A DNA stretch of 38,083 bases. It comes from a bacterium. GTDB lineage: Bacteria > Cyanobacteriota > Vampirovibrionia > Gastranaerophilales > UBA9971. Each line of letters opens with the position of its first letter. Position 1 is the first letter of the stretch. The translations under genes and the position numbers were made by a program. Shown piece after piece: positions 15,138 through 37,149 of this stretch. Location: the NCBI GenBank assembly GCA_037147175.1, contig JBAWVS010000025.1, positions 1 through 38,083 on the forward strand, written 5' to 3'. The notes under the pieces are model-generated. The model did not search any database. It saw only the letters and a program-made list of their open reading frames with translations, and was not told the DNA's origin.

Positions 15138-15145
15138 AGGTAAAT

Positions 15146-16249
15146 ATGCAGCAAAAGAAGTTTTATATATATACTTTAACTTTAATAACAATATTTTCGA
15201 CAATTATAATTGCCTTCAACGTTGTTGTGGACCCGTATGGTGTTTTAAATTTGTGTAATATATATAAATTTAACAAAGAAAAACCTGAATTAAAAACAAA
15301 TGAAAGAATATCCAAGTTGTTTACTGCAAAAATAAAAAAATATGACACTCTTTTTATTGGATCATCCAGAACAGATTTTGCGTTAGATCCTAAACATTAT
15401 TATAATTTAACAAAGAAAAAAGCATTAAATTTGGGCATAGGGGGTTCTGACATTTCAGAATCAAAAATAATATTACAAAAATTGATAAAAACACATCCAA
15501 ATCTTAAAACAATAATTTTAGAAGTTGATTATTTCGGATTTAATAGCACACATAAAATCAATAGTAATGAAAAAATCGATTCTTATATTTCATTGAATGA
15601 TTTTTTTAAATTATTTTTATCTTACGATTCTATAAAAAAAAGTATTTCCACTATAAATTATAATTTTAAAACTCCTAACAAGTTTATATATGATTATAAC
15701 GGATTAAGAATTAAAACTCCTGAACATAATTCATATAATTTAGCTCTTGCAGAAATCAACGGAGTTTTAACAAAAAATAAAAATTATTCACTAGATATAA
15801 GCCGACTGCAAAATTTACAAGAAATAAAAAGATTATGCAAACAAAACAATATTAAATTAATTGTTTTTGTTAGTCCTTTAAATTTTGCTGAAATTCACGG
15901 AATTAATTTAACCGGCAATTTTAATAAATATTTAAATTGGCGAAAAGAAATTAGTAAAATAACATCATTTTATGATTTTTCTATGGGAAATTATATTACA
16001 TACGAACCTTTAAAACCTCATATGAGATATTATTTTGATTCTCATCATTACACTATAGAAGTTGGACAAAAAATTCTAGATAAAATTTTAAATAAAAGTA
16101 ATATTGAATCAAATGATAACTTTGGAGTCATTATTACAATGAATAATATTGATAAATATAATAAAGAATTTTATTTGGAATATAAAAATTGGGCTTTAAA
16201 TAATAAAATAATTGTAAAAAAGATAAATCTGTTAAAGAACGGCGGTTGA
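15146..16249 (+). CDS. SGNH-like membrane-anchored acyltransferase partner of MBOAT
   Basis: The 367-residue protein has one N-terminal membrane segment (FYIYTLTLITIFSTIIIAFNVV), so most of it should be outside the cytoplasm. TLFIGSSRTDFAL at about residue 68 provides the SGNH nucleophile-type GxS, and FDSHHYTIEVGQKIL near residue 297 provides the DxxH dyad. Such proteins (AlgJ/AlgX/DltD logic) receive acyl groups from the MBOAT channel and esterify the glycan. The stop overlaps the following gene in a TTGA arrangement. A degraded copy of this C-terminus is found at 19.17-19.28 kb. Confidence 0.8.
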   Translation: MQQKKFYIYTLTLITIFSTIIIAFNVVVDPYGVLNLCNIYKFNKEKPELKTNERISKLFTAKIKKYDTLFIGSSRTDFALDPKHYYNLTKKKALNLGIGGSDISESKIILQKLIKTHPNLKTIILEVDYFGFNSTHKINSNEKIDSYISLNDFFKLFLSYDSIKKSISTINYNFKTPNKFIYDYNGLRIKTPEHNSYNLALAEINGVLTKNKNYSLDISRLQNLQEIKRLCKQNNIKLIVFVSPLNFAEIHGINLTGNFNKYLNWRKEISKITSFYDFSMGNYITYEPLKPHMRYYFDSHHYTIEVGQKILDKILNKSNIESNDNFGVIITMNNIDKYNKEFYLEYKNWALNNKIIVKKINLLKNGG

Positions 16250-17295
16250 ATTTTTCTGATAAAATAACTTGGATAGGTATAGATAGAATGTTTAATAAAT
16301 TACTAAAAGAATATAAACGGTTTATCAAAAAGCAATATTGCCAATTATTTGGTAATTATGATTTTTTGCCATTTTTATGTGATTGGTTTGATGATTGGAA
16401 AAAATATCACATAAAAAATCAATATACCATTCAAGAAAAACTTGATAAATTAAAGAAAAATATGGATCAACAAAGTAAAGATACTGTTGATTTAATTTAT
16501 AATAGATATGTTTTTATCAATCCTTGGTTTGCCGAGAGAGATAATTTTCTTATAAATCTTGATAAGCTCTTTACTGAAAAAGAATTAGTTCAGCAGAAAG
16601 AAAAGTTTTTTGTAGATAAAAACAAATTTAAACTTCCTAAAGGATTTGCACATGCTTTACCAATTTATAAATACGATGCAGGTTTATCTTTTTTAGATAG
16701 CAAGATTTTAAAACAGATAGAAGGAAAAGATATTATAGATGGTGGTGCTTTTATTGGTGATACAGCCATTGTTTTTAATAAATATAGTCCTTCTAAAATA
16801 TATTGTTTTGAGCCAAATGAAGAAAATTTTATAAATTTACAAATTACTTCAAAATTAAATAAATTAGAGGATAAAATTGTACCAGTTCAAAAAGGACTTG
16901 GCGAAAATGTTAATGAACTTAAATTATTCGGAGAGGGTGCCGGAGCCAGTTTAATTAATAATAATGATAATTACACAACTATTTCTGTTACAGATATAGA
17001 CAATTTTGTATTTATCAATGATATTAAACCTGCTTTAATAAAACTTGATGTTGAGGGTTTTGAGCTTGAAACAATTAAAGGGGCATTAAAAACTATAAAA
17101 ACTTTTAAACCTATCTTATTAATTTCTCTATATCATCAGCCCAAAGATTTTTTTGATATCAAACCTTTAATAGAGAGTTTAGAACTTAAATATAATTTTA
17201 TGGTCAGGAAAATAGACCCAAACCACACAACCGTAGAAACAATTCTAATAGGTTATACAGAAGAAGAAGAAGAAGATGATGACGATGATGAATAA
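16246..17295 (+). CDS. FkbM family methyltransferase with acidic tail
   Basis: The 349-residue protein has a 130-residue N-terminal extension, then DIIDGGAFIGDTAIVFNK (SAM loop), IYCFEPNEENFINL and the FkbM signature LIKLDVEGFELETIKGAL, followed by LLISLYHQPKDFF. It is expected to O-methylate a sugar. The TTG at 16246 overlaps the previous stop as TTGA, an arrangement also seen near 965; an ATG at 16288 is an alternative. The last eleven residues are EEEEEDDDDDE, encoded by a GAA/GAT simple repeat that also contains the start codons of the next gene. Confidence 0.88.
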   Translation: MNFSDKITWIGIDRMFNKLLKEYKRFIKKQYCQLFGNYDFLPFLCDWFDDWKKYHIKNQYTIQEKLDKLKKNMDQQSKDTVDLIYNRYVFINPWFAERDNFLINLDKLFTEKELVQQKEKFFVDKNKFKLPKGFAHALPIYKYDAGLSFLDSKILKQIEGKDIIDGGAFIGDTAIVFNKYSPSKIYCFEPNEENFINLQITSKLNKLEDKIVPVQKGLGENVNELKLFGEGAGASLINNNDNYTTISVTDIDNFVFINDIKPALIKLDVEGFELETIKGALKTIKTFKPILLISLYHQPKDFFDIKPLIESLELKYNFMVRKIDPNHTTVETILIGYTEEEEEDDDDDE

Positions 17296-18223
17296 AAACA
17301 AAAAAAAACATTTAATAGTTCTGGGGACAACAGGAAATATGGCATTTGCCACTGCAAATGTGCTTATTGGGATTAAAAAACATTCTCCTTATTTAAATGC
17401 TGATGTTGTTATTTATGAACAAAATGTATCAGAAAATGATAAAATACTTTTAAATTCAATAATGCCTTGTTCTTTTATTAATTATGAATTTCCAGTAAGA
17501 CAAACTGAAAGATTCGATCAAGACAGGTTAAATAGATTCACAGAATTAACTTTTTCCAGATATGAATGTTTTAGAATGCTGGATGAATACAAAAAAATAA
17601 TGTGGCTTGATATTGATATTCTGATACAAGGTGATATCACCCCTATGTTTGATTATAGCGATTCAACTGGTATTTCTTTTGTACCTGAACCATATCCAGT
17701 TTGGAGTCTTTTTACTCAGAGTGTACATGGGAATTATGACTGGAATAAAAAATTTTACAATGCAGGAATTTTTGTTATAGATGATAACCTTAAAGATAGG
17801 GATAAATTATGTGATTGGTGTTATAAAAAAACCTTTGAATATGCCCCTTTTCTTCATTTGCCTGACCAAGCAATTTTAAATATTATGTTTCAAGAATTCG
17901 AAATTGAAATAGAGCCTATGGCAAGAAAGTATAACTGTTATCCAACGGATAAATCTGCAAAAGAAGCTGTTTTACTTCATTCTTACTCTTCTGAAAAGTT
18001 CTGGAACTTTTGGGATTTTAAAGAATGGAATCAAAACTATAAAAAATGGTTAAAAATGGGTGGTTCTGCCTATACAGGGAAAAAAGCCAATTTCATCTCA
18101 AGGGAAGTAAAGAAAATTTTTCCACATGCCCCAGATATTATTAGAAAACCAAGAGCATTTGCTTTATATATTGTTGAAGAATACAAACGAATACAAAATT
18201 CTAAAAAACAGATAAAAGGATAA
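17276..18223 (+). CDS. GT8 family glycosyltransferase, paralogue 2
   Basis: The 315-residue GT8 enzyme has HLIVLGTTGNMAFATANVLIG at its start, the metal site KIMWLDIDILIQGDI, LPDQAILNIMFQEF, and C-terminal WNQNYKKWLKMGGSAYTG. Four possible ATG starts (17276, 17279, 17285, 17288) lie inside the acidic-tail repeat of the FkbM gene. The ATG at 17288 would best match the N-termini of the paralogues. It likely adds a hexose from a UDP donor. The next paralogue begins 4 bp downstream, indicating local duplication. Confidence 0.88.
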   Translation: MMTMMNKNKKKHLIVLGTTGNMAFATANVLIGIKKHSPYLNADVVIYEQNVSENDKILLNSIMPCSFINYEFPVRQTERFDQDRLNRFTELTFSRYECFRMLDEYKKIMWLDIDILIQGDITPMFDYSDSTGISFVPEPYPVWSLFTQSVHGNYDWNKKFYNAGIFVIDDNLKDRDKLCDWCYKKTFEYAPFLHLPDQAILNIMFQEFEIEIEPMARKYNCYPTDKSAKEAVLLHSYSSEKFWNFWDFKEWNQNYKKWLKMGGSAYTGKKANFISREVKKIFPHAPDIIRKPRAFALYIVEEYKRIQNSKKQIKG

Positions 18224-18226
18224 TTA

Positions 18227-19132
18227 ATGACGAGCAAAAAGGAAAAGTTAATAGTACTTGGGGCAACCGGAAATCTGACTTTTGCTGTTGCAAATGTGCT
18301 TATAGGGATCAAAAAACATTTACCAAATTTAGATGCGGATTTTATTATATTTCATAATGATATTTCTGAAAAAGATCAGAACTTACTTAATTCTATTATT
18401 CCCAGCAAATTTATAGATTATGAAATGCCAATAAATACTAACGGTGTTGAACAATCATCATTTCCAAGATATTCAAAACTCGCATTTTCTCGTTATGAAT
18501 GTTTTAGGATGTTGGACGAGTATAAAAAAGTTTTATGGATAGACGTTGATATTCTTATTCAAAAAGACATAAGCGGCATTTTTGACTATGCAAAAACAGG
18601 AATCAGCTTGTTACAAGAAGAAGCACCTCTTCAGGAATGTTTTTCTGTATCTTTAGAAAATTATGATATGCAAGGGTCTCATTATAATTCAGGAGTACTT
18701 CTGCTTGATGAAAATATTGTTGAACCAACTAAAATGGCTGATTGGCTTTATTCAAAGACTTATGAATTTGCAGATTACTTAAAATACGCAGATCAAGGCG
18801 TTATTAATCTTCTTATCCAAGAATTCAAATTGGAAGTTGACAAACTTCCTGAAAAATTCAACTGTCATCCTCGCAAAAAAGAAGTTACAAGAGCGCCTAT
18901 AGTACATACATATTCCCCACAAAAATTCTGGAGCTGGTATGAAAAGATGTATAACTTTAAAGAGTGGGATGAAAACTACAGAAAATGGCTTAAAATGGGT
19001 GGAACACCTTATAAAGGTATAAAATATGATTTTTGGGAAAAAATTGTTAAAAATTATCACTTTGATTGCCCGCATCCCCTAAGACAACCAGGAAAGTTTG
19101 TGAAATTTATTTTGAAGAAGAAAAAAGGATAA
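18227..19132 (+). CDS. GT8 family glycosyltransferase, paralogue 3
   Basis: The 301-residue protein starts KLIVLGATGNLTFAVANVLIG and has the metal site KVLWIDVDILIQKDI, YADQGVINLLIQEF and C-terminal WDENYRKWLKMGGTPYKG. It is clearly a tandem duplicate of the neighbouring gene and a relative of the copy at 5.4 kb. Between the DxD and the DQG motif (SLLQEEAPLQECFSVSLENYD) the copies diverge, which is where acceptor or donor choice would change in this fold. It is the last intact gene of the rightward operon before a decayed patch. Confidence 0.88.
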   Translation: MTSKKEKLIVLGATGNLTFAVANVLIGIKKHLPNLDADFIIFHNDISEKDQNLLNSIIPSKFIDYEMPINTNGVEQSSFPRYSKLAFSRYECFRMLDEYKKVLWIDVDILIQKDISGIFDYAKTGISLLQEEAPLQECFSVSLENYDMQGSHYNSGVLLLDENIVEPTKMADWLYSKTYEFADYLKYADQGVINLLIQEFKLEVDKLPEKFNCHPRKKEVTRAPIVHTYSPQKFWSWYEKMYNFKEWDENYRKWLKMGGTPYKGIKYDFWEKIVKNYHFDCPHPLRQPGKFVKFILKKKKG

Positions 19133-19136
19133 AATA

Positions 19137-19284
19137 ATGCTTTTTAATACAGATATGGCTCTTGGTTTATGAAGCTTCTCACTATAGGGTAAAAGTCGGG
19201 AATATGATTATTGATAAAATTTATAATTCAAAAGACAAAATTCCTGACTGCAATACCTTTGTGGAACTTATGTCACCGCATTAA
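19137..19284 (+). pseudogene. Composite relic of an MBOAT-SGNH gene pair
   Basis: The first bases encode MLFN, as at the MBOAT start at 13716, joined directly to TDMALG, which matches the internal YTDMALGI motif of that enzyme. After a break, VYEASHYRVKVGNMIIDKIYNS followed by a short tail to a TAA at 19284 corresponds to the C-terminal catalytic segment of the SGNH partner (FDSHHYTIEVGQKILDKI). The order MBOAT then SGNH is the same as in the intact pair, so this is an internally deleted second copy. No product is expected. Confidence 0.7.
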
Positions 19285-19373
19285 ATATTAATGAACACTT
19301 AAACTGCTTTATAAATGATTTTAAAAAACATTAGTTTCTTCTATAATTGTAAAATACAAAGTGAGAGTAAAAA

Positions 19374-20300
19374 ATGTTTAACACCCCGATATTATTTTTA
19401 ATATTTAACCGTCCTGATACAACCGAAAGAATTTTTGAAGAGATAAAAAAACAAAAACCAAAATATCTTTATGTTGCAGCTGATGGACCGCGTGCTGATA
19501 AAGAAGGCGAAACTGAAAATTGCAAACAAACCAGAGAAATTATTAGCCGAATTGATTGGGATTGCGAATTAAAAACACTTTTCAGAGATGAAAATCTTGG
19601 ATGTAAAATTGCAGTTAGTTCTGCTCTAAATTGGTTTTTTGAAAACGTTGAAGAAGGTATTATTCTTGAAGATGACTGCCTTCCCTCAAAAAGCTTTTTT
19701 AATTACTGTGAAATTTTGCTTGAAAAATACAGGAATGATACAAGAATAATGTGTATAAGTGGTGAAAATCCGCTTGATGAGGCACTTTGTTCCAAAAGTT
19801 ATTATTTCTCCCCTATTCCTCATATTTGGGGATGGGCAAGCTGGCGTCGGGCTTGGAATTTATACGATGTAGATTTTAAAGGGTTTGATACTTTTATTAA
19901 ATTTGATATCATCAACAATGTATTTGAGCAAAAAGAAGCTCATGAATACTGGAATAAGATATTCAACAGGGTAAAGAACAATGAAATAAACACTTGGGAC
20001 TACCAATGGACTTATGCTTTATTTGTAAATAACGGTTTAAGTATTATCCCGACAAAAAATATGGTTTCAAACATAGGATTTGGTCATGAACAAGCTTGTC
20101 ATACAAGTGAAAATTCACCTTGCGCAAATAGGGAAGTATTTGAACTTGGTGAAATCAATCATCCTCAATTTATTTGTGCGAGCAAAAAAGCTGTTAATGA
20201 AATATTGAAAGTACGCTATGATATTCAGGAAAAAACACCTTTATTTATTTTAAATCGTGAAATTTCAAGAGCATTAAGAAAACTGGTGAAAAATGCTTAA
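19374..20300 (+). CDS. Glycosyltransferase of the HlpA-like GT2 group
   Basis: The 308-residue protein starts TPILFLIFNRPDTTERIFEEIKK, contains YVAADGPR and the metal-site equivalent EGIILEDDCLPSKSFFNYC near residue 98, and IPHIWGWASWRRAW. This layout belongs to a GT-A group often annotated as hemolytic protein HlpA-like or sugar transferase; members act on surface glycans. A TATAAT-like box (tctataattg, about 19340) precedes the gene, so it may start a new transcript with the following GT4 gene, which overlaps it by 8 bp. Confidence 0.82.
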   Translation: MFNTPILFLIFNRPDTTERIFEEIKKQKPKYLYVAADGPRADKEGETENCKQTREIISRIDWDCELKTLFRDENLGCKIAVSSALNWFFENVEEGIILEDDCLPSKSFFNYCEILLEKYRNDTRIMCISGENPLDEALCSKSYYFSPIPHIWGWASWRRAWNLYDVDFKGFDTFIKFDIINNVFEQKEAHEYWNKIFNRVKNNEINTWDYQWTYALFVNNGLSIIPTKNMVSNIGFGHEQACHTSENSPCANREVFELGEINHPQFICASKKAVNEILKVRYDIQEKTPLFILNREISRALRKLVKNA

Positions 20301-21672
20301 AAACCCTATTGAATATACAGAAACAAGTTTTTATCAAAAGCACTTTTCTCAAAGAAAAGTCGCACAAAAAATTTATGAAAATTTTGTTTTACTGCATTTA
20401 AAAAAATATACTAAAAATTACTCTATTAATAATTATTTAAAAAATATACTTCACCTAAATACAGCCGTAGGAAGGGGTGGAGCCGCAAAAATAGCTTATA
20501 ATTATCTTAACAGAAATTTTAACAAGTTAGGGTATAATTCAAAACTTTTGGCGGGAATGATTTATTGCAATCAAGAATCTGATATTGAATTAATTAAGTG
20601 CAAAAATTTAAATATTCATAAGCTTTTGCATAAATATCAACGAAATTCAGGGTTATTAGATTTCTATAACCTTGCAAGTTTTGATATTCCCGAGATGGAA
20701 GTATTTAAAAATGCGGATATTATTCATTTACACAATTTGCATGGCTCTTATTTTTCACCATTTATGCTTCCTCAACTGACCTCTTTAAAACCTACAATAT
20801 GGACTTTGCACGATGAACAATCTTATACAGGGCACTGCGCTTATGCTTTTGACTGCAAAAAATGGCTAACAGGTTGCGGTAATTGTCCGGACTTAAATTT
20901 TTATCCCAAAATAAAAAATGACACTACTGAATTTCTTTTAAAAACAAAGAAGAAAATCTATGATATGTCTTATTTTAGTGTAGTTTGTCCTTCTAATTGG
21001 CTTGCCAACAGAGCAAAACAAAGTATTTTACAAAATAAAGATATCAGAGTGATTTATAATGGTGTAAATGAAAAAATCTTTATTAATGCAGACAAAATGG
21101 AATCACGAAAAGCTTTAAAACTCCCTTTAGATAAAAAAATTCTTATGTTCAGTGCAAGCGGAAGCATTAATAACCCACAAAAAGGTGGAAAATATTTTTT
21201 TGAGGCTTATAATCGCCTAAAAAACGATCATAATATTTTATTTCTTAATATAGGCGGAGGGGATTCTTCTAGAATTAAAAAAAACTGGATAGATATTCCG
21301 TACATAAACGATGAAAACACTATGGCACTTTATTATTCAGCATCTGATTTATTTATTTATCCCTCTATGGCTGAAACTTTTGGACTGGTTATCGCAGAAG
21401 CAATGTCTTGTGGTACTCCCGTAGTGGCTTTTAATAATACTGCTATCCCTGAAATAGTTGACCATTTGCAAACCGGATATCTTGCAGAAAATAAAAATAT
21501 TGATGATTTTATACATGGTATTAATTTATTTTTAAATAATGATGAATTACGAAAAGCTGCTATTCTTAAATCAAGACAAAAAATAGTAAAATATTTTACA
21601 CTTGATAAAATGATTCAAAATTATATAGATTTGTATAATGAAATTTTGTCTAAAGAAGCTATTATCAGCTAA
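20293..21672 (+). CDS. GT4 family glycosyltransferase
   Basis: The 459-residue protein has a 50-residue lead, then LNTAVGRGGAAKIAYNYL, IIHLHNLHGSYFS, WTLHDEQSYTGHCAYAFDC with a Cys-rich patch (WLTGCGNCPDL), and the donor motif YPSMAETFGLVIAEAMSCGTPVVAF (EX7E). This set is typical of WcaC-like GT4 enzymes of exopolysaccharide and O-antigen clusters. It overlaps the preceding gene by 8 bp and ends in a 4-bp convergent overlap with the gene at 21669. Confidence 0.9.
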   Translation: MLKNPIEYTETSFYQKHFSQRKVAQKIYENFVLLHLKKYTKNYSINNYLKNILHLNTAVGRGGAAKIAYNYLNRNFNKLGYNSKLLAGMIYCNQESDIELIKCKNLNIHKLLHKYQRNSGLLDFYNLASFDIPEMEVFKNADIIHLHNLHGSYFSPFMLPQLTSLKPTIWTLHDEQSYTGHCAYAFDCKKWLTGCGNCPDLNFYPKIKNDTTEFLLKTKKKIYDMSYFSVVCPSNWLANRAKQSILQNKDIRVIYNGVNEKIFINADKMESRKALKLPLDKKILMFSASGSINNPQKGGKYFFEAYNRLKNDHNILFLNIGGGDSSRIKKNWIDIPYINDENTMALYYSASDLFIYPSMAETFGLVIAEAMSCGTPVVAFNNTAIPEIVDHLQTGYLAENKNIDDFIHGINLFLNNDELRKAAILKSRQKIVKYFTLDKMIQNYIDLYNEILSKEAIIS

Positions 21673-22613
21673 ACTTTTGTTTTTAATGCGATTTTAAGTC
21701 GCTGAAAAGCTTTTGGTGAAAAAAATCTGAGCGGTAAATATCTTAAGTAATACAATATATAAAACAATTTAGCTTTTTTAGCGACTTTTTCTCCATAACA
21801 AAGTTTAAAAAAGAGAACCGTTCCTGTTAAAACCATTTTTTCTATTTTAAGTTGGTTATTTGATTTTGCCGAAGATGCTCCGCCAAAATGAATAATGCTG
21901 GATTCAGGAACAAATTTAATTCTATAACCATTTTTCTTCAAACGAAAACATAATTCAGCTTCTTCTCCAAACATAAAAAATTTTTCGTCAAAAGCACCGA
22001 CTTGATCTAAAGCAAATTTTCTAAGCAGCAAATTTGCTCCTATAATAAAATCTGGGTTATAATTGGATTCCAGAGCATAAGGCTTGTCTTCTTTGAGTGA
22101 TTCTTTGTGTTTCAAAACCTTTGTTTTAAATATATGTTTATATCTGTATAATAACTCTTGGAAATTTATTCCAAAAGCTTTTTTACGAAGCTTGTCTAAT
22201 GTATCAAATTCTCCTACCGAATCCTGAAGTGTCATGTCAGCATTATAAAGCTGACCGCCGCAACCGCCGACATCATAATTCTCATGTTTTTCCATAAAAT
22301 TAAAGAGTATCTTGACTGCATTATTAACTAAAACCGTATCTGTATTTAATAAAAAACAGTATTTAGCATCAGACTGTTTAATCGCGATATTGTTCGCTCT
22401 TCCAAACCCTAGATTTTCAGGACTTTCAATAAGCTTAACATCGGGAAATTCTTCTTTAATCATTTTAACAGAACCGTCTGAAGAAGCATTGTCCACAACC
22501 CAAATGTCGTATTCAATTCCATCAGTTTTTTCATATACTGATTTAATACAGTCTTTTGTTAATTCTTTTGTGTTGTAGTTAACGAGTATTATCGAAACGT
22601 CCATCTTCACCAT
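21669..22613 (-). CDS. GT2 family rhamnosyltransferase-like enzyme (WbbL type)
   Basis: The 314-residue protein has VSIILVNYNTKELTKDCIKS, YDIWVVDNASSDGSVKMI, the metal-site region YCFLLNTDTVLVNNA, and MFGEEAELCFRLKKNGYRI with the acceptor ED motif. This is the layout of WbbL-type rhamnosyltransferases that use dTDP-sugars, consistent with dTDP-sugar synthesis in the cluster. It lies only 43 bp downstream of the mobile operon on the same strand, so readthrough from that operon is possible. Confidence 0.88.
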   Translation of the reverse strand: MVKMDVSIILVNYNTKELTKDCIKSVYEKTDGIEYDIWVVDNASSDGSVKMIKEEFPDVKLIESPENLGFGRANNIAIKQSDAKYCFLLNTDTVLVNNAVKILFNFMEKHENYDVGGCGGQLYNADMTLQDSVGEFDTLDKLRKKAFGINFQELLYRYKHIFKTKVLKHKESLKEDKPYALESNYNPDFIIGANLLLRKFALDQVGAFDEKFFMFGEEAELCFRLKKNGYRIKFVPESSIIHFGGASSAKSNNQLKIEKMVLTGTVLFFKLCYGEKVAKKAKLFYILYYLRYLPLRFFSPKAFQRLKIALKTKV

Positions 22614-22655: not shown

Positions 22656-24308
22656 TCAAATTAAACAGAAATTTTTCTTTATTGCCGGAATAAACTTTCC
22701 GAATTTTTCAACAAGCGTATTTAAATTACTGCATCCGACTTGTTCTTTAACATAACTTAATGGTAAATTCTGCTCGATTAGTAAGGCTGTATAAGTATCT
22801 CTTAAGTCAATAAACTTAATATTTTCAAGTCCTGCTTTATTTGCCAGAGGCAGGAATTTATTGTGAAGCATATCTTCGGGATTTTGAAAATCTCCGTTAT
22901 CGTCAGGAAAAATATAAATACTTTTCGAAGAATCTTTTAATTTTGATAAAATTTCAATTATTTTATCCGGCAACTCAACGTATCTAACTGCTCTTTTGGA
23001 TTTAAGAACAATTATTTCACCGTTATATATCGACCTGTTTATTTTTATCCTTTTATTTGCCCAATCAACTTTATCCCAGGTCAAAGATAAGACTTCTCCT
23101 CTTGTTAATCCCGTGTTAACTGAAGTTACAAGCAGCGGGTAAAATTCCAAAATTTCATTTTTGCAGGTGTCTAAAAGTTTTTGAAGTTGTTTTTTATCAA
23201 GAATATTCATCCCGTTTGCGAATTCCATTTTTATTCGCTTAACTTCAACTCCGGCATAACTGTTATCCATATATATTCTTTGGATTTTTTTTATTAAATT
23301 TATATGTCTTCTTATTGTTTGCGGAGTGAGCGATTGTTCTTGCAATAATATTTCGTATTTTTGCAAGTTTTTTTCATTAATATCTGTTAATTTCATATTT
23401 TTAAAAAAAGGAATCAAATGCAAATTAATATATGACTTGTAATGACACAAAGAAGTTTTTTTGATTTCATTGCTTTTAATCAGATCCTTTAAATAATCTT
23501 TAGCGGCAGTTTGAAAAGTATTGAAACCTGATTTCTTTTGAATTATTTTAATCTTTTTCTTTTGATCATATATATTACCAAGTTCAGAATCTTTAAACAC
23601 TAAAATATCATTTTTTATCCTTGTGGTAAATGTATTATAGCTTGGAAAATCTCGTTTTATTTCTTCAGGATTATTTTTTAAATGTTCGGCACCGAATTTT
23701 GTATAATTATATTTTAAACTTTTCCCTTTATTTTCCAGAACATAATCCCTGAATTCTCTGTAAAGAGTTTCATCCAATTGATGATTTGCTGATAAAAAAC
23801 TTCTGCCGGGAGATATTAAACCTGCTACTCCATATTTTTTCAGTTTTCTTTTTGCCCTGTAGAACGCAGGCTGAGAGGTTTCCATAGAAGGATGCTGTAC
23901 ATTCCAAACTTCATTGATATAATCATAAAGCTTTTTTCCTTTCATGTTCTCCACTTTTTTTAACAGGTCAATATATTTATTTATCATTTGCTTGATAGCT
24001 TTTGGAGAATTTATGAAAGCATCAAGCGTATTTCGTTCTTCATCAAGTTTTTGAATCTCTTCTAATGAAAATGAAATGAATTTTTTACTTATAACTTTTT
24101 CTTTAAAACGTTTTGACTTGAATTGGTATTCATCTGCCTGCTTATAGATATAGGTTTCTTCGTCGATTTTTTTAATCTTACCTGCAGAAATAAAATCCTT
24201 TAAAAAATCTTCAACTCTGTCCTCGCTCTCTTCCGCCATAATGAGCAACTCGTCAAAAGTAAAGAAGTGCAGTCTTTTAGCTAGTTTTGTCAGTTTAGCA
24301 TTTATCAT
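22656..24308 (-). CDS. Mu-like DNA-binding region fused to a degenerate tyrosine recombinase, copy 2
   Basis: The 550-residue protein has a winged-helix-like start (FTFDELLIMAEESEDRVEDFL), then residues 95-235 resembling the end-binding helical region of Mu-type transposases (VWNVQHPSMETS, KKYGVAGLIS, FPSYNTFTTRIKND). Where a DDE core would follow, residues 260-345 are a SAM-like core-binding domain and residues 370-550 a tyrosine-recombinase domain. Catalytic positions are largely lost: arginine I is T402 (TGLTRGE), the HxxR His is I500 although R503 remains, the LGH His is C526 and the nucleophile is F536; the beta-hairpin Lys (K436) survives. The intact frame and strong similarity to the adjacent copy suggest a selected binding role without cleavage. 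Alignments are by eye. Confidence 0.82.
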   Translation of the reverse strand: MINAKLTKLAKRLHFFTFDELLIMAEESEDRVEDFLKDFISAGKIKKIDEETYIYKQADEYQFKSKRFKEKVISKKFISFSLEEIQKLDEERNTLDAFINSPKAIKQMINKYIDLLKKVENMKGKKLYDYINEVWNVQHPSMETSQPAFYRAKRKLKKYGVAGLISPGRSFLSANHQLDETLYREFRDYVLENKGKSLKYNYTKFGAEHLKNNPEEIKRDFPSYNTFTTRIKNDILVFKDSELGNIYDQKKKIKIIQKKSGFNTFQTAAKDYLKDLIKSNEIKKTSLCHYKSYINLHLIPFFKNMKLTDINEKNLQKYEILLQEQSLTPQTIRRHINLIKKIQRIYMDNSYAGVEVKRIKMEFANGMNILDKKQLQKLLDTCKNEILEFYPLLVTSVNTGLTRGEVLSLTWDKVDWANKRIKINRSIYNGEIIVLKSKRAVRYVELPDKIIEILSKLKDSSKSIYIFPDDNGDFQNPEDMLHNKFLPLANKAGLENIKFIDLRDTYTALLIEQNLPLSYVKEQVGCSNLNTLVEKFGKFIPAIKKNFCLI

Positions 24309-24323
24309 TTTTTACAAACCCTA

Positions 24324-25973
24324 TTATATTAAACATAAATTTTCTTTTGTTTTTTGAGGAATAAAGTCTTTATACCTGTCGACCAAAACATTCATATTGG
24401 TAAATCCAAATTGTTTTTTAACATATGATAAAGGAATATTTTGCTGTATTAAAAAAGCTGCGTAGCTGTCTCTCAGGTCAAGAAACTTGATGTTTTCAAG
24501 TCCGGCTTTATTTATCAGCGGCAGGAATTTTGTATTGATCATAATTTCAGGATCCTGAATCCTTCCGTGTTCATTCGGGAAAATATATGTGGATGTAGGA
24601 TTTTTTCTTAATTCTGATAAAATTTCAACCAACGTATCCGGCAAATCAATATACCTGCTGGCTTCGCGTGTTCTAAGGGTCAATATTTGCCCTTTGTAAA
24701 TGGATTTATTTACTAATAATCTTTTGTTTTCAGGCTCATACTTGTCCCAGGTGAGGGCAAGAACTTCTCCTCTCGTTATTCCTGTATTAACCGCCGTTAC
24801 AAGCAGCGGATAAAAATCGGGAAATTCTTTTTTACAGGTTCTTAACAACCTTATTATTATCTCCTTCTCTAGGATATTTGCTTCGCTTAAGAATTTTACC
24901 CCTATTTTTATTGATGCTGAGGTACGGCAGGTTGTATCCAGATATATTTTTAAAATTTTTCTCACTAAATTAATATGAACTTTTATGCTTCTTGGTGACA
25001 GCTGCTGCTCTTCAAGCATAGTTTTGTATTCTTTAAGCTTATGTACATCAATATCTTTTAATTTAATATTTTGAAAAAACGGTATCGAATAAAAATTTAT
25101 CATTGCTTTGTAATTCTTGCAGGTAACTTCTTCAACTTCATTTTTTTCAGCCAAATCCTTTATATAATCTTCAGCAGCAGTTCGGAATGTTTTAAAGCCG
25201 AGTTTTTTTTGAATTATTATAAATTTTTTCTTTTCATCAAACATTTTTGCAAGACTAAAATCGTTAAACTTCAAAATATCTTTTTTGATTCTTGCTGTAA
25301 CTGAATAATATGTGGGGAATTCCCATTTTTGACTATCAATATTATTTTTTAAATAATCTGCCTTAAAAGTCAGAAAATTTTCTTTTAAGCTTTTATCAGT
25401 ATTTTGAAGAAAATATTCTTTTATTTCATTGTAAACATCTTCATCTATCGGGTCATTAACAGATATATATTTTCTCATCGGAGAAATTAAGCCTGTTATT
25501 CCGGTAGTTTTTAATATTTTTCTTGCTTTTACAAATGAAGCTTTTGAAGTTTTCATATCAGGATGCTGAATATTCCAAACATTAACTATATAGCTCAGCA
25601 AAATTTTGCCGTTAGCGTTTTTTACTTCTTTTAACAGGTCAACATATTTATTAATCATATTTTGAACTGCAAGAGGTGCATTTTTAAATGCTGCAACAGT
25701 TTTTCTTTCAATATCAAGGTTGTCTATTTCTGTCTGTGAAAAGAAATCAGGCTGTTGCTTTTCTTTTGTTTGAAATTCTTTTATTTGTATAACAGGAATA
25801 AATTCATTGTATTTATACTTGTTGTCTCTATCAAACTTAATTTTATTCACTGCAAAAAATTCATCAAGGAAAATTTTAACAGTCTGTTCGTCTTCCCCTG
25901 ACATAATTAAAAATTCTTCAAAAGTAAATTTTTTAAGCCTCTTAGCCAGCTTTGTCAGTTTCTTCGCTGTCAT
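24324..25973 (-). CDS. Mu-like DNA-binding region fused to a degenerate tyrosine recombinase, copy 1
   Basis: The 549-residue protein has the same architecture as its downstream neighbour: winged helix (FTFEEFLIMSGEDEQTV), Mu-like segment with VWNIQHPDMKTS and TTGITGLIS, core-binding domain from about residue 260, and recombinase domain from about residue 370. Arginine I is T400 (TGITRGE), the hairpin Lys position is R434, the HxxR His is L498 with R501 kept, the LGH His is F524, but a tyrosine is present at Y534. Loss of arginine I and both His argues against normal strand exchange. It overlaps the AAA ATPase gene by 32 bp, so the ATPase and this protein probably act together, as MuB does with MuA (inference). 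Confidence 0.82.
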   Translation of the reverse strand: MTAKKLTKLAKRLKKFTFEEFLIMSGEDEQTVKIFLDEFFAVNKIKFDRDNKYKYNEFIPVIQIKEFQTKEKQQPDFFSQTEIDNLDIERKTVAAFKNAPLAVQNMINKYVDLLKEVKNANGKILLSYIVNVWNIQHPDMKTSKASFVKARKILKTTGITGLISPMRKYISVNDPIDEDVYNEIKEYFLQNTDKSLKENFLTFKADYLKNNIDSQKWEFPTYYSVTARIKKDILKFNDFSLAKMFDEKKKFIIIQKKLGFKTFRTAAEDYIKDLAEKNEVEEVTCKNYKAMINFYSIPFFQNIKLKDIDVHKLKEYKTMLEEQQLSPRSIKVHINLVRKILKIYLDTTCRTSASIKIGVKFLSEANILEKEIIIRLLRTCKKEFPDFYPLLVTAVNTGITRGEVLALTWDKYEPENKRLLVNKSIYKGQILTLRTREASRYIDLPDTLVEILSELRKNPTSTYIFPNEHGRIQDPEIMINTKFLPLINKAGLENIKFLDLRDSYAAFLIQQNIPLSYVKKQFGFTNMNVLVDRYKDFIPQKTKENLCLI

Positions 25974-26655
25974 TATGCAAAAACTCCTTAATTGTTATCT
26001 CATCAATTGTGCTTAAACCGTTAGCATGAGCTATATTTTCTGCTTTATTTATCAATTTGACTATTTGTCTGAACCTGTTTGTCTTGTTAAAAATGTATTT
26101 AATAGCGCAATCAGTCATTTCAATTTCTGAAAGCTGTTCAATTATTGTTTTTATATCTTTTTTAGAAAAAGGCTCAAATTTTAATTTTTCAGAAATCCTG
26201 TCATATAAATGGCGATATCTCAGAAGTTTTTTATCTGCCATCCCCATCCCTGCCATTACAATAGAAACATTCGTTTTGTCATAAATATCTCGCAGTGTTT
26301 CTATAGCTGATTCATTTCCCGTTAAATAGTCTATTTCATCGACAATAATTACTTTTGGTTCATTATTTAACTGTCGGACACATTGTTTAAACAAATCAGC
26401 AGAAAAATGATACGGAACTTCGCCTAATTCTTCTATTAATTCCTGCATTAACCACCTTGCCGACATATTATTGGCAGCCCTTATGAAAATTGCATCGTTT
26501 TGAGTCGCCCACCACAGAAGAGCTTGAGTTTTTCCAAGTCCCGGTTCTCCATAAACAAGAGACATCCCCGGCACTCCTTCGGCTCTGTTTTGCAAATTAT
26601 TCATCATGTTTATGAAATTTTTAACATTTTGTGTCCGCGCAAATACTTTTTTCAT
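25942..26655 (-). CDS. MuB/TniB-like AAA ATPase
   Basis: The 237-residue protein shows Walker A GEPGLGKT (residues 36-43), Walker B VIIVDEID (about 102-109) and a sensor region VSIVMAGMGMADKKL. It begins KKVFARTQNVKNFINMM, like MuB/TniB-type proteins. MuB-like ATPases coat target DNA, choose insertion sites and activate the transposase. It overlaps the upstream DUF4268-like gene by 4 bp and the downstream chimeric recombinase gene by 32 bp. In phage Mu the order is A then B; here the putative A-equivalent comes after B. Confidence 0.9.
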   Translation of the reverse strand: MKKVFARTQNVKNFINMMNNLQNRAEGVPGMSLVYGEPGLGKTQALLWWATQNDAIFIRAANNMSARWLMQELIEELGEVPYHFSADLFKQCVRQLNNEPKVIIVDEIDYLTGNESAIETLRDIYDKTNVSIVMAGMGMADKKLLRYRHLYDRISEKLKFEPFSKKDIKTIIEQLSEIEMTDCAIKYIFNKTNRFRQIVKLINKAENIAHANGLSTIDEITIKEFLHNDSEETDKAG

Positions 26656-27410
26656 CTTTTAATCTTCTCCATACATTTGCTTATGTTCTTTGCTTTGCCA
26701 AGCTGTTTTTCAATATCGGCTTTAAAACTTTCCAGCTTGTAAAATATCTCTTTATCTTTTGCAATCAACAGTTCACAGCCAAGATTATTTTTAGCGGTAT
26801 TAATTGTAAGCTGAATCGAAACTCCGGAGATTCCGATAGAAATGTATTGCCAATGCTGCGGCGCCGGAACGGATATTTTCAAGGGGGAGTTATTTTCGGT
26901 TGCGTATTTATGAAATTCCTGCCAGAATTGTTCCTGTTTTTCTTTTGTATTGCTAATTTTCGCTTTGGGCTTTTGATAATCGTTAGCTGACGGCTTTAAT
27001 AATTCTTTAAATCGCAATTCATTATTTTTAAAACAGCATTTAAATATATACAGCTTCACTTCATGAGCAATAATTGTACTTAGCCAGCTTGCTGTTTGCA
27101 TTGCATCGGGTATTTCTTGATTTACCAGCCAGACGATGTTTTTTGCATTATGCTTTGATGCGTATTTTAAAAGACCTGCAAGGGTTTTAAGGTTTTGTTT
27201 AAGCTCGCATTCAATAACCGTCTTTTCATGGAGGTTGCAGACTGCAATAATATCAGCCTGCTCGTCGCTTGATTGCTCAGATACCGATAAAAACCGGATG
27301 TTTGATCCGAGAATTTTTTCGAGCATTTCTTTTCCTTCTTCTGCCACAAAGGTTCTGAAATCTTTTCTGCTTTTAAAAACGGCTGATTCGTTGTTTGATT
27401 TTACTGTCAT
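26652..27410 (-). CDS. DUF4268-like protein with nuclease-fold N-terminus
   Basis: The 252-residue protein has an N-terminal alpha-beta region with ADIIAVCNLHEKTVIECELKQNLKTLAGLLKYA, NIVWLVNQ and TASWLS. This fits the PD-(D/E)XK-like layout seen in DUF4268 proteins, with D and ExE in plausible catalytic positions. The C-terminal part, EQFWQEFHKYATENNSPL and QHWQYISIGISGVSIQL, is the DUF4268 signature. Its role is unknown; members occur near defence and mobile loci. Overlaps the AAA gene by 4 bp and is preceded by AAGGAG and an 11-bp inverted repeat. Confidence 0.72.
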   Translation of the reverse strand: MTVKSNNESAVFKSRKDFRTFVAEEGKEMLEKILGSNIRFLSVSEQSSDEQADIIAVCNLHEKTVIECELKQNLKTLAGLLKYASKHNAKNIVWLVNQEIPDAMQTASWLSTIIAHEVKLYIFKCCFKNNELRFKELLKPSANDYQKPKAKISNTKEKQEQFWQEFHKYATENNSPLKISVPAPQHWQYISIGISGVSIQLTINTAKNNLGCELLIAKDKEIFYKLESFKADIEKQLGKAKNISKCMEKIKR

Positions 27411-28029: not shown

Positions 28030-29403
28030 CTAATAGTAAGTGCTCCAATCGATGTCATCGCAGAAGCCCTTCATCATATCGTCTGCTTCCCACCTGTGTC
28101 TTGTTTCGATAGTGAACGGTTCTTTATAACTTTGCGCCGCATGAAGCGCAAGCGCCAAAGCCCAAAATCTGTCAGCATGTCCTGATACATCCGATTTCTC
28201 GACATCAAACCTGATATGTCCTGACGTTGTTATAACCTTTCTGACTGAATGCAAGTCATCTCTAATCTCCCGGTGGGACGGAATGTAAACCGTTCTGTCT
28301 TCAAAGTTGGTTCTCAGGTTGTATGCAAGCTCTTCTTTTACCTTCGCGTTAAAATTGATGCCTTCTACTCTGTAGTGTCCGTATTTTTCCACGGCTGATT
28401 CGGCTAACTGAGCTCCAAGTCCAGTTGCGTCTATACAGCATCTTCTTAAATTTTCAAGTTTTAAGATATTTGCCAAAACTTGCTCCTGAATTCGAAACGG
28501 AGTTTTTTCAATAATTTTAACCATTCTTGTATATTTTACGTTTCCGAGTTTTTCCAGAACCCAAATTACAGTCAGATCTTTCTTTCTGCCGATGTCCATT
28601 CCTACATAAAGATCGCCTGTTAAACTTTCCAATTCTTTGTAAAGATTATCGAGTTCGCAGGTGTAAATAAGTTCGTAGGGAAGAAATGCAGTTGTTTCAT
28701 CCATTGCCTCGCAGCAATATTCCTGAAGCCAGGTTTGCTCGTCAAAACAGTTTACCCTTTGTTCTTCCAGCCACTCATGTTTTTCTTTTTTAGTTGTCTC
28801 CCTGCCGTATATTTTATCTACAAGCCCTTCCTTGACTGCAAGTTGAATCGGCGTCGAATGAAGAGACCATTTGCTCTGTTTTGTTTTAATGTCGTCTACA
28901 AACTTGTAAAACCTGCAATTTTGTCCGTTATGAGTCGATAAAATCCTGAGCGGATAATTCCAAGTGATGCAGGGCTTGGCTGCAGCCCATAAATCTTCTT
29001 GCTTTGCGTGATGCGCAAATTCATCAAGCACGACTTTGCCGCCCTTGCTTCTGAATCCTTTGGGATTAGAACTTAACGCGTTAATTTTTGCGCCATTTGA
29101 AAACTCTATAACATAAGCTTTAATGTCATTTTCCGAATCGACTATTACGTTTCCATGATATTTGGCTGCAATATTTAAAAGCCTGACCCACTGTTCGCAA
29201 TATCCAATATATTCTCTGGCGGCAGACTCGTCGGATGAAGAGAACCAAACATCGGGAACTTTCTTCGCAACGCAGTCAATTACATCTTCATAACTCTGAA
29301 CATAAGTAGCGCCGATGCGGCGAGACTTTTCCCACACTTTGATTTTTGATTTATCGTCCAGCCATTTTTTTTGATACGGGAACCAATAATTATCGAGATT
29401 CAT
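28030..29403 (-). CDS. terL: Phage terminase large subunit (Mu gp28-like)
   Basis: The 457-residue packaging motor has all motifs in order: the variant Walker A WEKSRRIGAT (residues 24-33), Walker B VVLDEF (124-129), the coupling motif LSTHNG (155-160), and nuclease acidic residues in VGMDIGRKKD (D270), CIDATGLG (D325) and GHADRFWALALAL (408-420). It corresponds to the Mu gp28 / FluMu terminase family that cuts and packages DNA into proheads. It appears intact, yet no portal, protease or capsid gene follows; the downstream genes are DUF4268-like proteins and transposition-type proteins. A 65-codon piece of a second terL is at 37.15-37.36 kb. Confidence 0.92.
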   Translation of the reverse strand: MNLDNYWFPYQKKWLDDKSKIKVWEKSRRIGATYVQSYEDVIDCVAKKVPDVWFSSSDESAAREYIGYCEQWVRLLNIAAKYHGNVIVDSENDIKAYVIEFSNGAKINALSSNPKGFRSKGGKVVLDEFAHHAKQEDLWAAAKPCITWNYPLRILSTHNGQNCRFYKFVDDIKTKQSKWSLHSTPIQLAVKEGLVDKIYGRETTKKEKHEWLEEQRVNCFDEQTWLQEYCCEAMDETTAFLPYELIYTCELDNLYKELESLTGDLYVGMDIGRKKDLTVIWVLEKLGNVKYTRMVKIIEKTPFRIQEQVLANILKLENLRRCCIDATGLGAQLAESAVEKYGHYRVEGINFNAKVKEELAYNLRTNFEDRTVYIPSHREIRDDLHSVRKVITTSGHIRFDVEKSDVSGHADRFWALALALHAAQSYKEPFTIETRHRWEADDMMKGFCDDIDWSTYY

Positions 29404-29404
29404 T

Positions 29405-29836
29405 TTATACCTCTGCTTTCGTATATTTTCTTAATCCTAAAAGTTCTTCAATTTCTCTTACGTCCTGCTCGGATAAAACATTGTTCTTTTCGACAGGGCG
29501 CGATTTGATGACAAGATCCTCATACTGTTTTATTTTCATAATAAGGGGGAGCAGTTTTGTAAATGTGTATAATCTCCCCGGATTTGCTCCCTGACCGTTT
29601 TTAATATCTGCTTCAATCGAATCCATTATGGTTTGGGAGAAATTATACAGTCTTTCATGAAAAGCTTTCTTTCCGCTGAGGTATTCGAGTCTCATTTCAT
29701 CCCACACCCCTTCTTGTTTCCACTTAAGAACCGTCTTGTAGTTTAGTTTCAGAGATGAAGCAATACTTTGCAAACTCATTTGCTCCCGGACATATTTTTT
29801 CTCTGCTTCGTCATAATGCGTTTGCCGTTTACTCAA
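29405..29836 (-). CDS. Terminase small subunit-like HTH protein
   Basis: The 143-residue protein has an N-terminal helix-turn-helix (YVREQMSLQSIASSLKLNYKTVLKWKQEGVWDEMR), a helical middle (KAFHERLYNFSQTIMDSIEADI) and a short C-terminal VLSEQDVREIEELLGL. This matches small terminase-type proteins of Mu-like phages, which bind the packaging site and recruit TerL, encoded 1 bp downstream. The start is TTG at 29836 with AAAGGAG upstream; the second copy at 37.4 kb uses TTG too. It is the first gene of the mobile operon. Confidence 0.82.
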   Translation of the reverse strand: MSKRQTHYDEAEKKYVREQMSLQSIASSLKLNYKTVLKWKQEGVWDEMRLEYLSGKKAFHERLYNFSQTIMDSIEADIKNGQGANPGRLYTFTKLLPLIMKIKQYEDLVIKSRPVEKNNVLSEQDVREIEELLGLRKYTKAEV

Positions 29837-32535: not shown

Positions 32536-32958
32536 ATGAAATCAGCATATTTAGAGAAAACTTTAAAAATTGTATCTACAAATGATGACTTCAATGATGA
32601 AATAGAAATTATTAACAAAATAGAAGAAGGATTTTCTTTTGAAGTTATTGAAGAACTTATTACGGAAAATAAATTTTCCCTTCAGGAAATAATTGAACTT
32701 GTTCTTCCAAACAGAACATATTACAGAAGAAAAAAAGAAATGCGATTAAATTCTGAAGAATCTGATATCGTCGCAAATTTATTCAACTTAACTGAATTTG
32801 CAGAAGAAGTTTTTGGAGATAAAGAAAAAGCTTATAATTGGTTGCGCAGGATTAACAGGTCCTTAAAAAGCAGAAAGCCCATAGCTCTTTTAAAAACTGC
32901 TTTTGGAAGAAAAATTGTAGAAGATGTTTTAAGCAGAATAGCATATGGTGTTTATTAA
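32536..32958 (+). CDS. Xre/MbcA/ParS-type antitoxin of a RES toxin
   Basis: The 140-residue protein matches the Xre-like antitoxins with a C-terminal toxin-binding domain (DUF2384): SLQEIIELVLPNRTYYRRKKEMRLNSEESD near the centre, then FGDKEKAYNWLRRINRSLKSRKPIALLKTAFGRKIVEDVLSRIAYGVY. This C-terminal motif set normally blocks the active site of its partner. The gene has GAGGG upstream, and its stop overlaps the toxin start by one base (TAATG), the usual arrangement for this pair. Confidence 0.92.
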   Translation: MKSAYLEKTLKIVSTNDDFNDEIEIINKIEEGFSFEVIEELITENKFSLQEIIELVLPNRTYYRRKKEMRLNSEESDIVANLFNLTEFAEEVFGDKEKAYNWLRRINRSLKSRKPIALLKTAFGRKIVEDVLSRIAYGVY

Positions 32959-33389
32959 TGCATGTCTATCGTTTATGCAAAGAAGGATACAGTAATCTTG
33001 ACGGGGACGGCGCAAGTAAAACCAATAATTCATGGAATTCAAAAGGCAAACATGTTATATATACATCCGAAAATATTGCTTTAACTATTTTAGAAATACT
33101 TGTTCATCTCGATTATGATTTAATTCCGAATGATTATTGTTTATTAACAATTGATATTCCTGATAATTGCACAGTTGAACAATATTCAAAAACAACTTTA
33201 TCAAGGAATGAAACTATAAGGTTTGGAGATGAATGGCTGACAAGCAAAAGATCCTTAATTTTAGCTACGCCTTCATATATTATTAATAAAGAAAAAAATA
33301 TTCTTATTAATCCTAATCATCCTGAGTTTACAAATATTAAAGTAATAAACAAAGAGCCTTTTAATTTTGACAGCAGACTTTTTAAGTAA
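32958..33389 (+). CDS. RES domain toxin
   Basis: The 143-residue protein starts HVYRLCKEGYSNLDGDGA and has WNSKGKHVIYTSENIALTILEILVHLD, the R-E-S bearing core, and later WLTSKRSLILATPSYIINKEKNILINPNHPEF. RES toxins (MbcT, ParT, Res) break down NAD+ or use it to modify a target, and are held inactive by the Xre partner encoded immediately upstream. Length and motifs are complete, so the module is probably functional. It sits among mobile-element relics, consistent with horizontal arrival. Confidence 0.93.
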   Translation: MHVYRLCKEGYSNLDGDGASKTNNSWNSKGKHVIYTSENIALTILEILVHLDYDLIPNDYCLLTIDIPDNCTVEQYSKTTLSRNETIRFGDEWLTSKRSLILATPSYIINKEKNILINPNHPEFTNIKVINKEPFNFDSRLFK

Positions 33390-34458: not shown

Positions 34459-35237
34459 TTAATTTTTCAAACAAACTTCTTGTTTAGCCGGAAGTAAAAA
34501 TTGCGATTCAATAAGATTGTAATCTTCTGCCGTAAACAATTTTCTTACCTCCTTTAAGGTTTTATTCCTAAGTTTTTGCTGTTTAACTATTTTTTGTTTG
34601 TAATCCTGAATATCATTTATGTCTCCAAGATGATGTGCCATCGGATGCGTTGAAGTAACACGACTTGCCCTGCATAAAAACTCATTTTTCATTGAATAAA
34701 CTTTTACTGAACTTAAATCAAACAGGCTGTACTTAACTATAGCCTTGCCTCTGATTCCATAAAGCGTGTCATCGTAATAATCCTGCTTTAAAAACCGGAT
34801 GCCGTTCCTGTGGATGGTTTTAATTTCCATCGCCATCATCAAATCATCAAGTTCCTGCTCGTTAATTTCCTGCTTTTCAACAGTTGAAAGAACCTCTGCA
34901 ATTGTTTTGCCTTTGACATTCGGACAAGGGCAACCCGTTTCATATTCGCAGGAATTATTTTTTCTTGTGTTGATTGAATATTTGCTAACTCAGCTTCCGT
35001 ATCTTCAAACACCATTGATTGGTAATATTCGTTTAAATATTTGCTTTGAAGTTCGGGTTCTAAAGAACTTAAGCAAATCTTGTAAACCTTATCTCCTCTT
35101 GTATCTTCGGTTTTGTAGATATATTTATTGGTTTGCCTTAAAGATAAACGAACCGCTCTTTCTGTAATTTTTTTTAAAGAAGCAACGGCTCTTACATCCA
35201 GCCAAACCCGTGTGGTGTCGATAATTTTTTCTGTCAT
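34459..35237 (-). pseudogene. Mu-type transposase relic lacking its catalytic core
   Basis: From 35237 the frame encodes a MuA-like N-terminal DNA-binding domain (WLDVRAVASLKKITERAVRLSLRQ ... YKICLSSLEPELQSKY). Near 34960-34990 homology passes to another frame: YETGCPCPNVKGKTIAEVLSTVE and then EIKTIHRNGIRFLKQDYYDDTLYG, KAIVKYSLFDLSSVKVYSM and NEFLCRAS, the C-terminal beta-barrel of Mu transposases. The DDE catalytic domain and most of the end-binding helices, roughly 350-400 residues, are absent. It derives from an ordinary DDE-type relative of the chimeric proteins at 22.7-26.0 kb. Confidence 0.82.
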
Positions 35238-35759: not shown

Positions 35760-35829
35760 TTCGGACATTTTAAGCAGACCGACAAACTAGGGCAAAAGCC
35801 GCACCGTTTCAATCAAGCGGCGATTTTTT

Positions 35830-35848
35830 GCGAGTTGCGAATGGGACA
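35830..35848. mobile_element. Putative element terminus D (TGTCCCATT...)
   Basis: Read from outside, the end is TGTCCCATTCGCAACTCGC, containing the array motif TCCCAT directly after TGT. hsdR coding sequence begins at once beyond 35848. Just inside lies a GCCGC/GCGGC stem (about 35796-35820) followed by a T-run. No matching opposite end or target duplication was found. Confidence 0.55.
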
Positions 35849-37030: not shown

Positions 37031-37149
37031 ATGAAATGGTTTATAGACCAACGGAACAAAATTTTGAAAGAAGAGCCTTTTCGCCTTGAAAAAGGGATAA
37101 AAGTTGATGTATATTTGCCTAACTTTACTAAAACTATTATAGATGACAG
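37031..37149 (+). pseudogene. Truncated hypothetical gene interrupted by a terL fragment
   Basis: About 39 codons are genuine (MKWFIDQRNKILKEEPFRLE, then GIKVDVYLPNFTKTIIDD). Past about 37149 the frame merely reads through the antisense of a terL fragment. The preceding gene is 4 bp upstream, so this was the next gene of the hsdR-linked operon. Function unknown; broken by recombination with Mu-like element DNA. Confidence 0.6.

What the first reader, a model, noticed from the sequence alone, without database searches (positions are those of the whole stretch)
22656..25973. Tandem proteins joining a Mu-transposase-like DNA-binding region to a tyrosine recombinase domain
Both proteins of about 550 residues show a Mu-like end-binding segment (for example VWNIQHPDMKTS, TTGITGLIS, PTYYSVTARIKKD) where a DDE domain should follow, but carry a core-binding plus tyrosine-recombinase domain instead. 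They lie directly after a MuB-like ATPase. I know of no described family in which the DDE core of a Mu-type transposase is replaced by a tyrosine recombinase. The Mu and recombinase assignments rest on motif reading by eye.
Basis: partly seen in the sequence, partly recalled or inferred. Interest (0 to 1): 0.88.

Follow-up and report, generated by a model that had tools for sequence, protein, structure and literature searches.

The report
Dead-integrase target selectors of Mu-type transposons
Two neighbouring genes encode proteins that join a Mu-transposase-type DNA-binding region to a catalytically dead integrase; relatives show that they are the third gene of a family of defence-gene transposons that land just past tRNA genes, so they probably choose the landing site rather than cut DNA.

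Summary
The architecture is real. Both proteins (549 and 550 aa) carry a winged helix (1-58), a MuA-type end-binding region (about 80-242) and a complete tyrosine-recombinase (TR) fold (about 262-540), after a MuB-like ATPase. The reading "TR replaces the DDE core" is wrong. In relatives the operon is an intact DDE transposase, MuB, then the fusion; the window's own DDE gene is a remnant at 34459-35237. The TR domain lacks Arg-I and His-II in 21 of 21 fusions, while free integrases in the same genome keep them, yet dN/dS is about 0.06-0.12: a dead but maintained DNA-binding domain. In Candidatus Gastranaerophilales the family forms transposons of about 14-19 kb with defined ends, 5-bp target duplications (10 of 15 pairs) and defence cargo. 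Fourteen of 18 insertions lie 39-380 bp past the 3' end of a tRNA gene (chance about 5e-26). In the window's own genome, all three copies of a shared left-end block lie 38-50 bp past tRNA-Val, -Ala and -His. Best explanation: a target selector that works like TnsF of Tn6022, but in the MuA/MuB lineage and without TniQ. That the TR domain itself reads the tRNA gene is inferred. The window copy looks non-autonomous.

The parts
24324..25973 (-). fusion protein 1 (549 aa): winged helix, MuA-type DNA-binding region, inactive tyrosine recombinase
25800..25973 (-). fusion 1 residues 1-58, winged helix shared with the third-gene proteins of related elements
   Evidence: shared segment of 55-60 residues with L009 TR and L015 TR; helices and beta wing in AF2 model
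25248..25736 (-). fusion 1 residues ~80-242, MuA I-beta/gamma-like DNA-binding region
   Evidence: hhalign 99.9% against MuA N-termini; profile hits on MuA ORFs; PF09039 in stand-alone homologue
24936..25190 (-). fusion 1 residues ~262-346, core-binding (SAM-like) domain
   Evidence: PF14659, PF13102
24354..24866 (-). fusion 1 residues ~370-540, degenerate catalytic domain (Arg-I to Thr, Lys to Arg, His-II to Leu, His-III to Phe; Arg-II and Tyr kept)
   Evidence: PF00589; alignment
22656..24308 (-). fusion protein 2 (550 aa), paralogue of fusion 1; Arg-I to Thr, His-II to Ile, His-III to Cys, nucleophile Tyr to Phe
25942..26655 (-). MuB/TnsC-type AAA ATPase; its 3' end overlaps the start of fusion 1
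   Evidence: phrog_296 E=1e-53, AAA_22, TniB
34839..35237 (-). remnant of the DDE transposase gene (residues 1-127)
34459..34950 (-). remnant of the DDE transposase gene (residues ~452-612); the catalytic core (about 128-451, holding D281, D348, E394) is deleted
26652..27410 (-). DUF4268 protein now occupying the place where relatives have the DDE transposase
   Evidence: PF14088 E=3e-16; homology with the C28 element stops 33 bp upstream of MuB

Best explanation
The fusions are target selectors of a Mu-type transposon. A separate DDE transposase binds the transposon ends and joins DNA; the MuB ATPase marks target DNA; the fusion docks on this machinery (probably through its winged helix, shared by all third-gene variants, and/or its MuA-type region) and uses its catalytically dead integrase domain to recognise a site in or next to tRNA genes, the usual attachment sites of integrases. 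MuB is loaded there and the element inserts in either orientation, some tens to hundreds of bp past the 3' end of the tRNA gene, with a 5-bp duplication. Shown: domain make-up, operon, dead but conserved TR, element ends and target duplications, tRNA-proximal insertion. Inferred: that the fusion, and its TR domain in particular, causes the tRNA targeting; its contacts with MuB and the DDE protein.
For: Third gene after DDE and MuB in about 20 loci, sometimes in tandem as in the window. Arg-I and His-II absent in 21/21 fusions, present in free integrases of the same genome; purifying selection on the TR domain, dN/dS 0.06-0.12. Ends and perfect 5-bp target duplications in 10 of 15 pairs of ends (chance 2e-27). 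tRNA gene with its 3' end facing the element within 380 bp in 14/18 insertions, nine on the left and five on the right counted over all calls; the three new placements plus one were scored after the hypothesis was formed; 36-42 tRNA genes per genome, chance about 5e-26. Own genome: 139-bp left-end block occurs three times, each 38-50 bp past a tRNA gene. An element whose third gene is winged helix plus TR without the Mu region (L015) also sits at a tRNA, whereas L010 (Mu region without TR) has none in 17.5 kb. Thirteen Mu-like transposase loci have no tRNA within their 4-kb stretches. Several free relatives of the TR domain lie beside tRNA genes. Dead TR as target selector is proven for TnsF (PMC10293859).
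Against: No experiment. Four of 18 insertions have no tRNA. Distances vary from 39 to 380 bp and tRNA identity varies, unlike the fixed attTn7 offset. Five of 15 end pairs lack matching duplications. Two elements without a TR third gene (L178, L187) are also near tRNAs, so the winged helix or another protein could be the determinant. The comparison of TR-bearing with TR-lacking elements rests on few loci, in part without defined ends (p about 0.01). In the window's own genome only left-end blocks were found, no right ends. The window copy lacks an intact DDE gene and has no tRNA in 38 kb.
Confidence: 0.62

Rival explanations
1. Accessory end-binding or regulatory protein: the fusion binds transposon ends through its MuA-type and TR domains to assemble or repress transposition, and tRNA targeting comes from MuB, the DDE protein or host features.
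For: MuA-type region normally binds element ends or the enhancer (established knowledge); all three modules are DNA-binding; two TR-lacking elements near tRNAs.
Against: Does not explain why an integrase domain was recruited and kept; 13 Mu-like DDE loci without a third gene show no tRNA nearby; the element with TR but no Mu region is at a tRNA.
Confidence: 0.25
2. Cointegrate resolvase: a Mu-type element copies itself into a cointegrate that the TR domain resolves, like TnpI or TniR.
For: Gene position resembles the resolvase gene of Tn5053-type elements (memory); TR fold complete.
Against: Arg-I and His-II missing in 21/21, His-III missing and Tyr to Phe in fusion 2, Arg-II to Gln in a whole subfamily.
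Confidence: 0.06
3. One reading: an active hybrid transposase in which a tyrosine recombinase replaces the DDE core.
For: Domain order; no intact DDE gene next to MuB in this window.
Against: Separate DDE gene in nearly all relatives with invariant triad; dead TR; 5-bp duplications typical of DDE transposition.
Confidence: 0.02
4. Decaying gene remnants without present function in this window.
For: DDE core deleted, nested remnants around, no tRNA or clear ends in the window.
Against: Both fusions and MuB are intact open frames; the family is under purifying selection elsewhere. Concerns this copy only; intact DDE copies elsewhere in the genome (C22, C28, C57) could act in trans.
Confidence: 0.05

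Closest known systems
TnsF of Tn6022 (Tn7-like), Faure et al. 2023, PMC10293859
   Same: Inactivated tyrosine-recombinase domain on a DDE/AAA transposon; DNA-binding N-terminal extension; proposed or proven role in choosing a fixed safe site.
   Different: TnsF has zinc fingers, two CB domains and a partial CAT domain, works through TniQ, in a TnsABC element, at comM. Here the CAT fold is complete, the partner domain is MuA-type plus winged helix, no TniQ was found, the element is of the MuA/MuB lineage, and insertions are at tRNA genes.
TnsD/TniQ homing to tRNA genes in CAST I-D (CyCAST), same paper
   Same: Insertion a short distance downstream of a tRNA gene chosen by a dedicated selector.
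   Different: Selector is TnsD; offset nearly fixed at 30-33 nt; here 39-380 bp and several tRNA identities.
Phage Mu MuA/MuB and Mu-like prophages of the same bacteria
   Same: MuB-type ATPase, MuA-type end-binding region, DDE transposase with Mu-transpos_C, 5-bp duplications.
   Different: Not a phage (no hits in viral contigs); third protein without DDE core; defence cargo; non-random insertion.
Integrases of tRNA-inserted islands
   Same: TR domain most similar to these, e.g. L011, L020 beside tRNA-Val.
   Different: Catalytic residues lost; fused to MuA-type region.

Membership tests
Active tyrosine recombinase | CB plus CAT fold | tested here: met
   Pfam and Foldseek
Active tyrosine recombinase | R-K-H-R-H/W-Y catalytic set | tested here: not met
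   Arg-I and His-II absent in 21/21; fusion 2 also lacks Tyr
Mu-type (MuA) transposase | I-beta/gamma end-binding region | tested here: met
   PDB-level support weak
Mu-type (MuA) transposase | DDE core and Mu-transpos_C | tested here: not met
   not in the fusion; present in the separate upstream protein of relatives
TnsF (Tn6022 target selector) | inactivated TR domain | tested here: met
TnsF (Tn6022 target selector) | operon with TniQ in a TnsABC element | tested here: not met
   operon is DDE, MuB, fusion; no TniQ in 14 genomes, but that search had no positive control
TnsF (Tn6022 target selector) | N-terminal zinc fingers | tested here: not met
   winged helix and MuA-type region instead
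Target selector (functional class) | elements insert at a common site type | tested here: met
   14/18 past tRNA genes
Target selector (functional class) | protein is required for and binds the target | not testable with these tools
   needs transposition and binding assays
Mu-like phage | virion genes within the element | tested here: inconclusive
   sampled cargo is defence genes and no viral contig matched; a TerS-like gene follows the fusion in many elements and TerS/TerL lie in the window

The most novel reading that the evidence does not exclude
A Mu-lineage family of non-phage, defence-carrying transposons has evolved its own modular homing system: a shared winged-helix adaptor with exchangeable DNA-reading modules (MuA-type region, dead integrase, others), in which dead integrases steer DDE transposition to tRNA genes, convergently with TnsF and without TniQ.
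Probability: 0.5. Interest if true: 0.85.

Novelty: new variant of a known kind. Interest (0 to 1): 0.74.

Why it matters
Phage Mu and MuB are the textbook case of nearly random insertion. A Mu-lineage transposon with a dedicated, integrase-derived site selector would show that site-directed DDE transposition with a dead integrase arose outside Tn7, would explain how defence islands gather beside tRNA genes in gut cyanobacterial relatives, and offers a simple three-protein system (DDE, MuB, selector) in which swapping DNA-reading modules could be studied.

Tried and rejected
TR replacing the DDE core: rejected. Resolvase: rejected on catalytic residues. A conserved ~300-bp block downstream of the fusion was first taken for the right end; it is an internal gene start, shared flanks continue beyond it and no target duplications fit; true right ends were then found by their likeness to the left end. 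Phage satellite idea (TerS-like gene, 14-19 kb size): kept as a lead only, since sampled cargo is defence genes and no viral contig matched. Searching genome contigs with the window protein alone found nothing; a subfamily alignment worked. Right ends of the elements in the window's own genome and the ends of the window's own copy could not be found. The test for TniQ had no positive control.

Full report
What is there. The two ORFs are at the stated place: 24324-25973 (549 aa) and 22656-24308 (550 aa), minus strand, 51-52% identical, following a MuB-like ATPase at 25942-26655. Both end in a tyrosine-recombinase unit (PF14659/PF13102 core-binding domains, PF00589) and the AF2 model (mean pLDDT 74, pTM 0.38) matches Tn1549 integrase, XerA and lambda integrase.

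The Mu-type region. Taken singly the window proteins do not reach a Mu family model. Their relatives do: a stand-alone homologue in the same genome (L010:8127-8873) hits PF09039, the Mu I-gamma domain, at E=2e-5 above the cut-off. A profile of the region finds the N-termini of full-length MuA-like transposases at E 1e-28 to 1e-37 in single-genome searches, and hhalign against such N-termini gives 99.9% over 151 columns. Solved structures give weak but consistent signs: MuA I-gamma 2ezh is the top sequence hit at E=0.048 and TnsB chains are the top fold hits at E about 0.8-4. Residues 1-58 are a winged helix that also starts the separate N-domain and TR proteins of related elements.

Not a replaced DDE core. 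In about 20 loci the gene order is DDE transposase (646-715 aa), MuB, fusion. The DDE protein has Mu-transpos_C and an invariant D281, D348, E394 triad. In the window's genome the related element on C22 has the same order but with the N-domain and the TR as two separate genes; C57 has winged helix plus TR only; C32 has the N-domain only. The window's own DDE gene survives only as pieces at 34459-35237 without the catalytic core, and homology with the C28 element breaks off 33 bp upstream of MuB. The window copy is therefore probably not autonomous.

A dead integrase. In an alignment of 21 fusions with free TR proteins from the same genome, Arg-I and His-II are missing in every fusion. Fusion 1 keeps only Arg-II and Tyr; fusion 2 keeps Lys and Arg-II and has Phe for Tyr; a whole subfamily also has Gln for Arg-II. 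The TR domain nevertheless evolves under strong purifying selection, dN/dS mostly 0.06-0.12.

The element. Complete relatives come from MAGs labelled Candidatus Gastranaerophilales or Melainabacteria; the window's genome is of the same order. The best sampled subfamily has left ends TGTAAAGAAACAGGACAATACAG and right ends TTTTTCTGTTTTCTCATGTTAATTAACA, spans about 14-19 kb, and has perfect 5-bp duplications in 10 of 15 pairs of ends (three of them pairing ends on two contigs). Sampled cargo is type I and type II restriction-modification genes, HEC-06-like and kinase proteins. No viral contig encodes a relative, and no phage or plasmid record covers both halves.

Where it lands. In 14 of 18 insertions of this subfamily a tRNA gene lies within 39-380 bp of an element end, always with its 3' end facing the element: Ser, Met, Ile, Gln and Phe genes, at either end of the element. 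With 36-42 tRNA genes per ~2-Mb genome the chance is about 5e-26. L095, L098, L104 and L092 were scored after the idea had been formed and all four fit; L109 did not. In two cases read in full the insertion lies just past the apparent terminator of the tRNA gene. In the window's own genome, a 139-bp left-end block occurs three times, 38, 50 and 40 bp past tRNA-Val, -Ala and -His. As controls, 13 Mu-like transposase loci have no tRNA in their 4-kb stretches. Elements with a Mu-type third gene but no TR show fewer tRNA neighbours (2 of 9 against 16 of 20, p about 0.01), but their ends are not defined and two of them are near tRNAs, so this contrast is weak.

How it most likely works. The DDE protein and MuB do the transposition; the fusion selects the site. 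Its dead integrase domain belongs to a group whose free members often lie beside tRNA genes, which makes tRNA-gene recognition the simplest guess. The MuA-type region may hold the selector to the transposon ends, and the winged helix, which is common to all third-gene variants including one with an unrelated C-terminus (L187), may be the docking part. These last steps are inference.

Relation to known systems. TnsF of Tn6022 is a target selector with an inactivated TR domain that acts through TniQ at comM (PMC10293859). The present proteins work, on this reading, like TnsF, but fail its defining context: no TniQ was found (without positive control), the transposase and ATPase are of Mu type, the N-terminal part differs and the targets differ. 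They are best called a new variant of a known kind. In the library searched, no paper describes such a component for a Mu-lineage transposon; subscription papers and preprints are not covered.

Noticed in passing
window 29405-29836 and 37359-37832; L050 11133-11561, L053 10873-11301 and others: A TerS-like HTH gene (gp27/DUF1804-like) follows the fusion directly in many complete elements; the window holds two paralogues, one with a full TerL (28030-29403) and one with a TerL fragment (37137-37355). Could be a packaging or regulatory part; unexplained.
   Followed up: partly
window 32536-33389: Xre antitoxin (PF09722) and RES-domain toxin (PF08808) pair between the DDE remnant and MuB.
   Followed up: partly
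window 35828-36769: C-terminal piece of a type I restriction R subunit (T1RH-like_C, E=4e-87), consistent with decayed defence cargo.
   Followed up: partly
L187 4829-5488 (-); L178 9931-10764 (-): Other third-gene variants after DDE and MuB: in L187 the same winged helix joined to an unrelated C-terminal part, in L178 a diverged winged-helix/Mu-type protein; both elements near a tRNA gene. Suggests exchangeable DNA-reading modules.
   Followed up: partly
L010 9247-14112: Separate Mu-like prophage early region (repressor, MuA 678 aa, MuB 291 aa) directly beside an element of DDE, MuB, N-domain.
   Followed up: no
window 12500-22613: Large glycosyltransferase gene cluster ends 42 bp from the stop of fusion 2, so one side of the window element was probably lost or rearranged.
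   Followed up: no
L058 11796 to L068 ~3255: A single 2819-aa ORF as cargo of one complete element, not identified.
   Followed up: no
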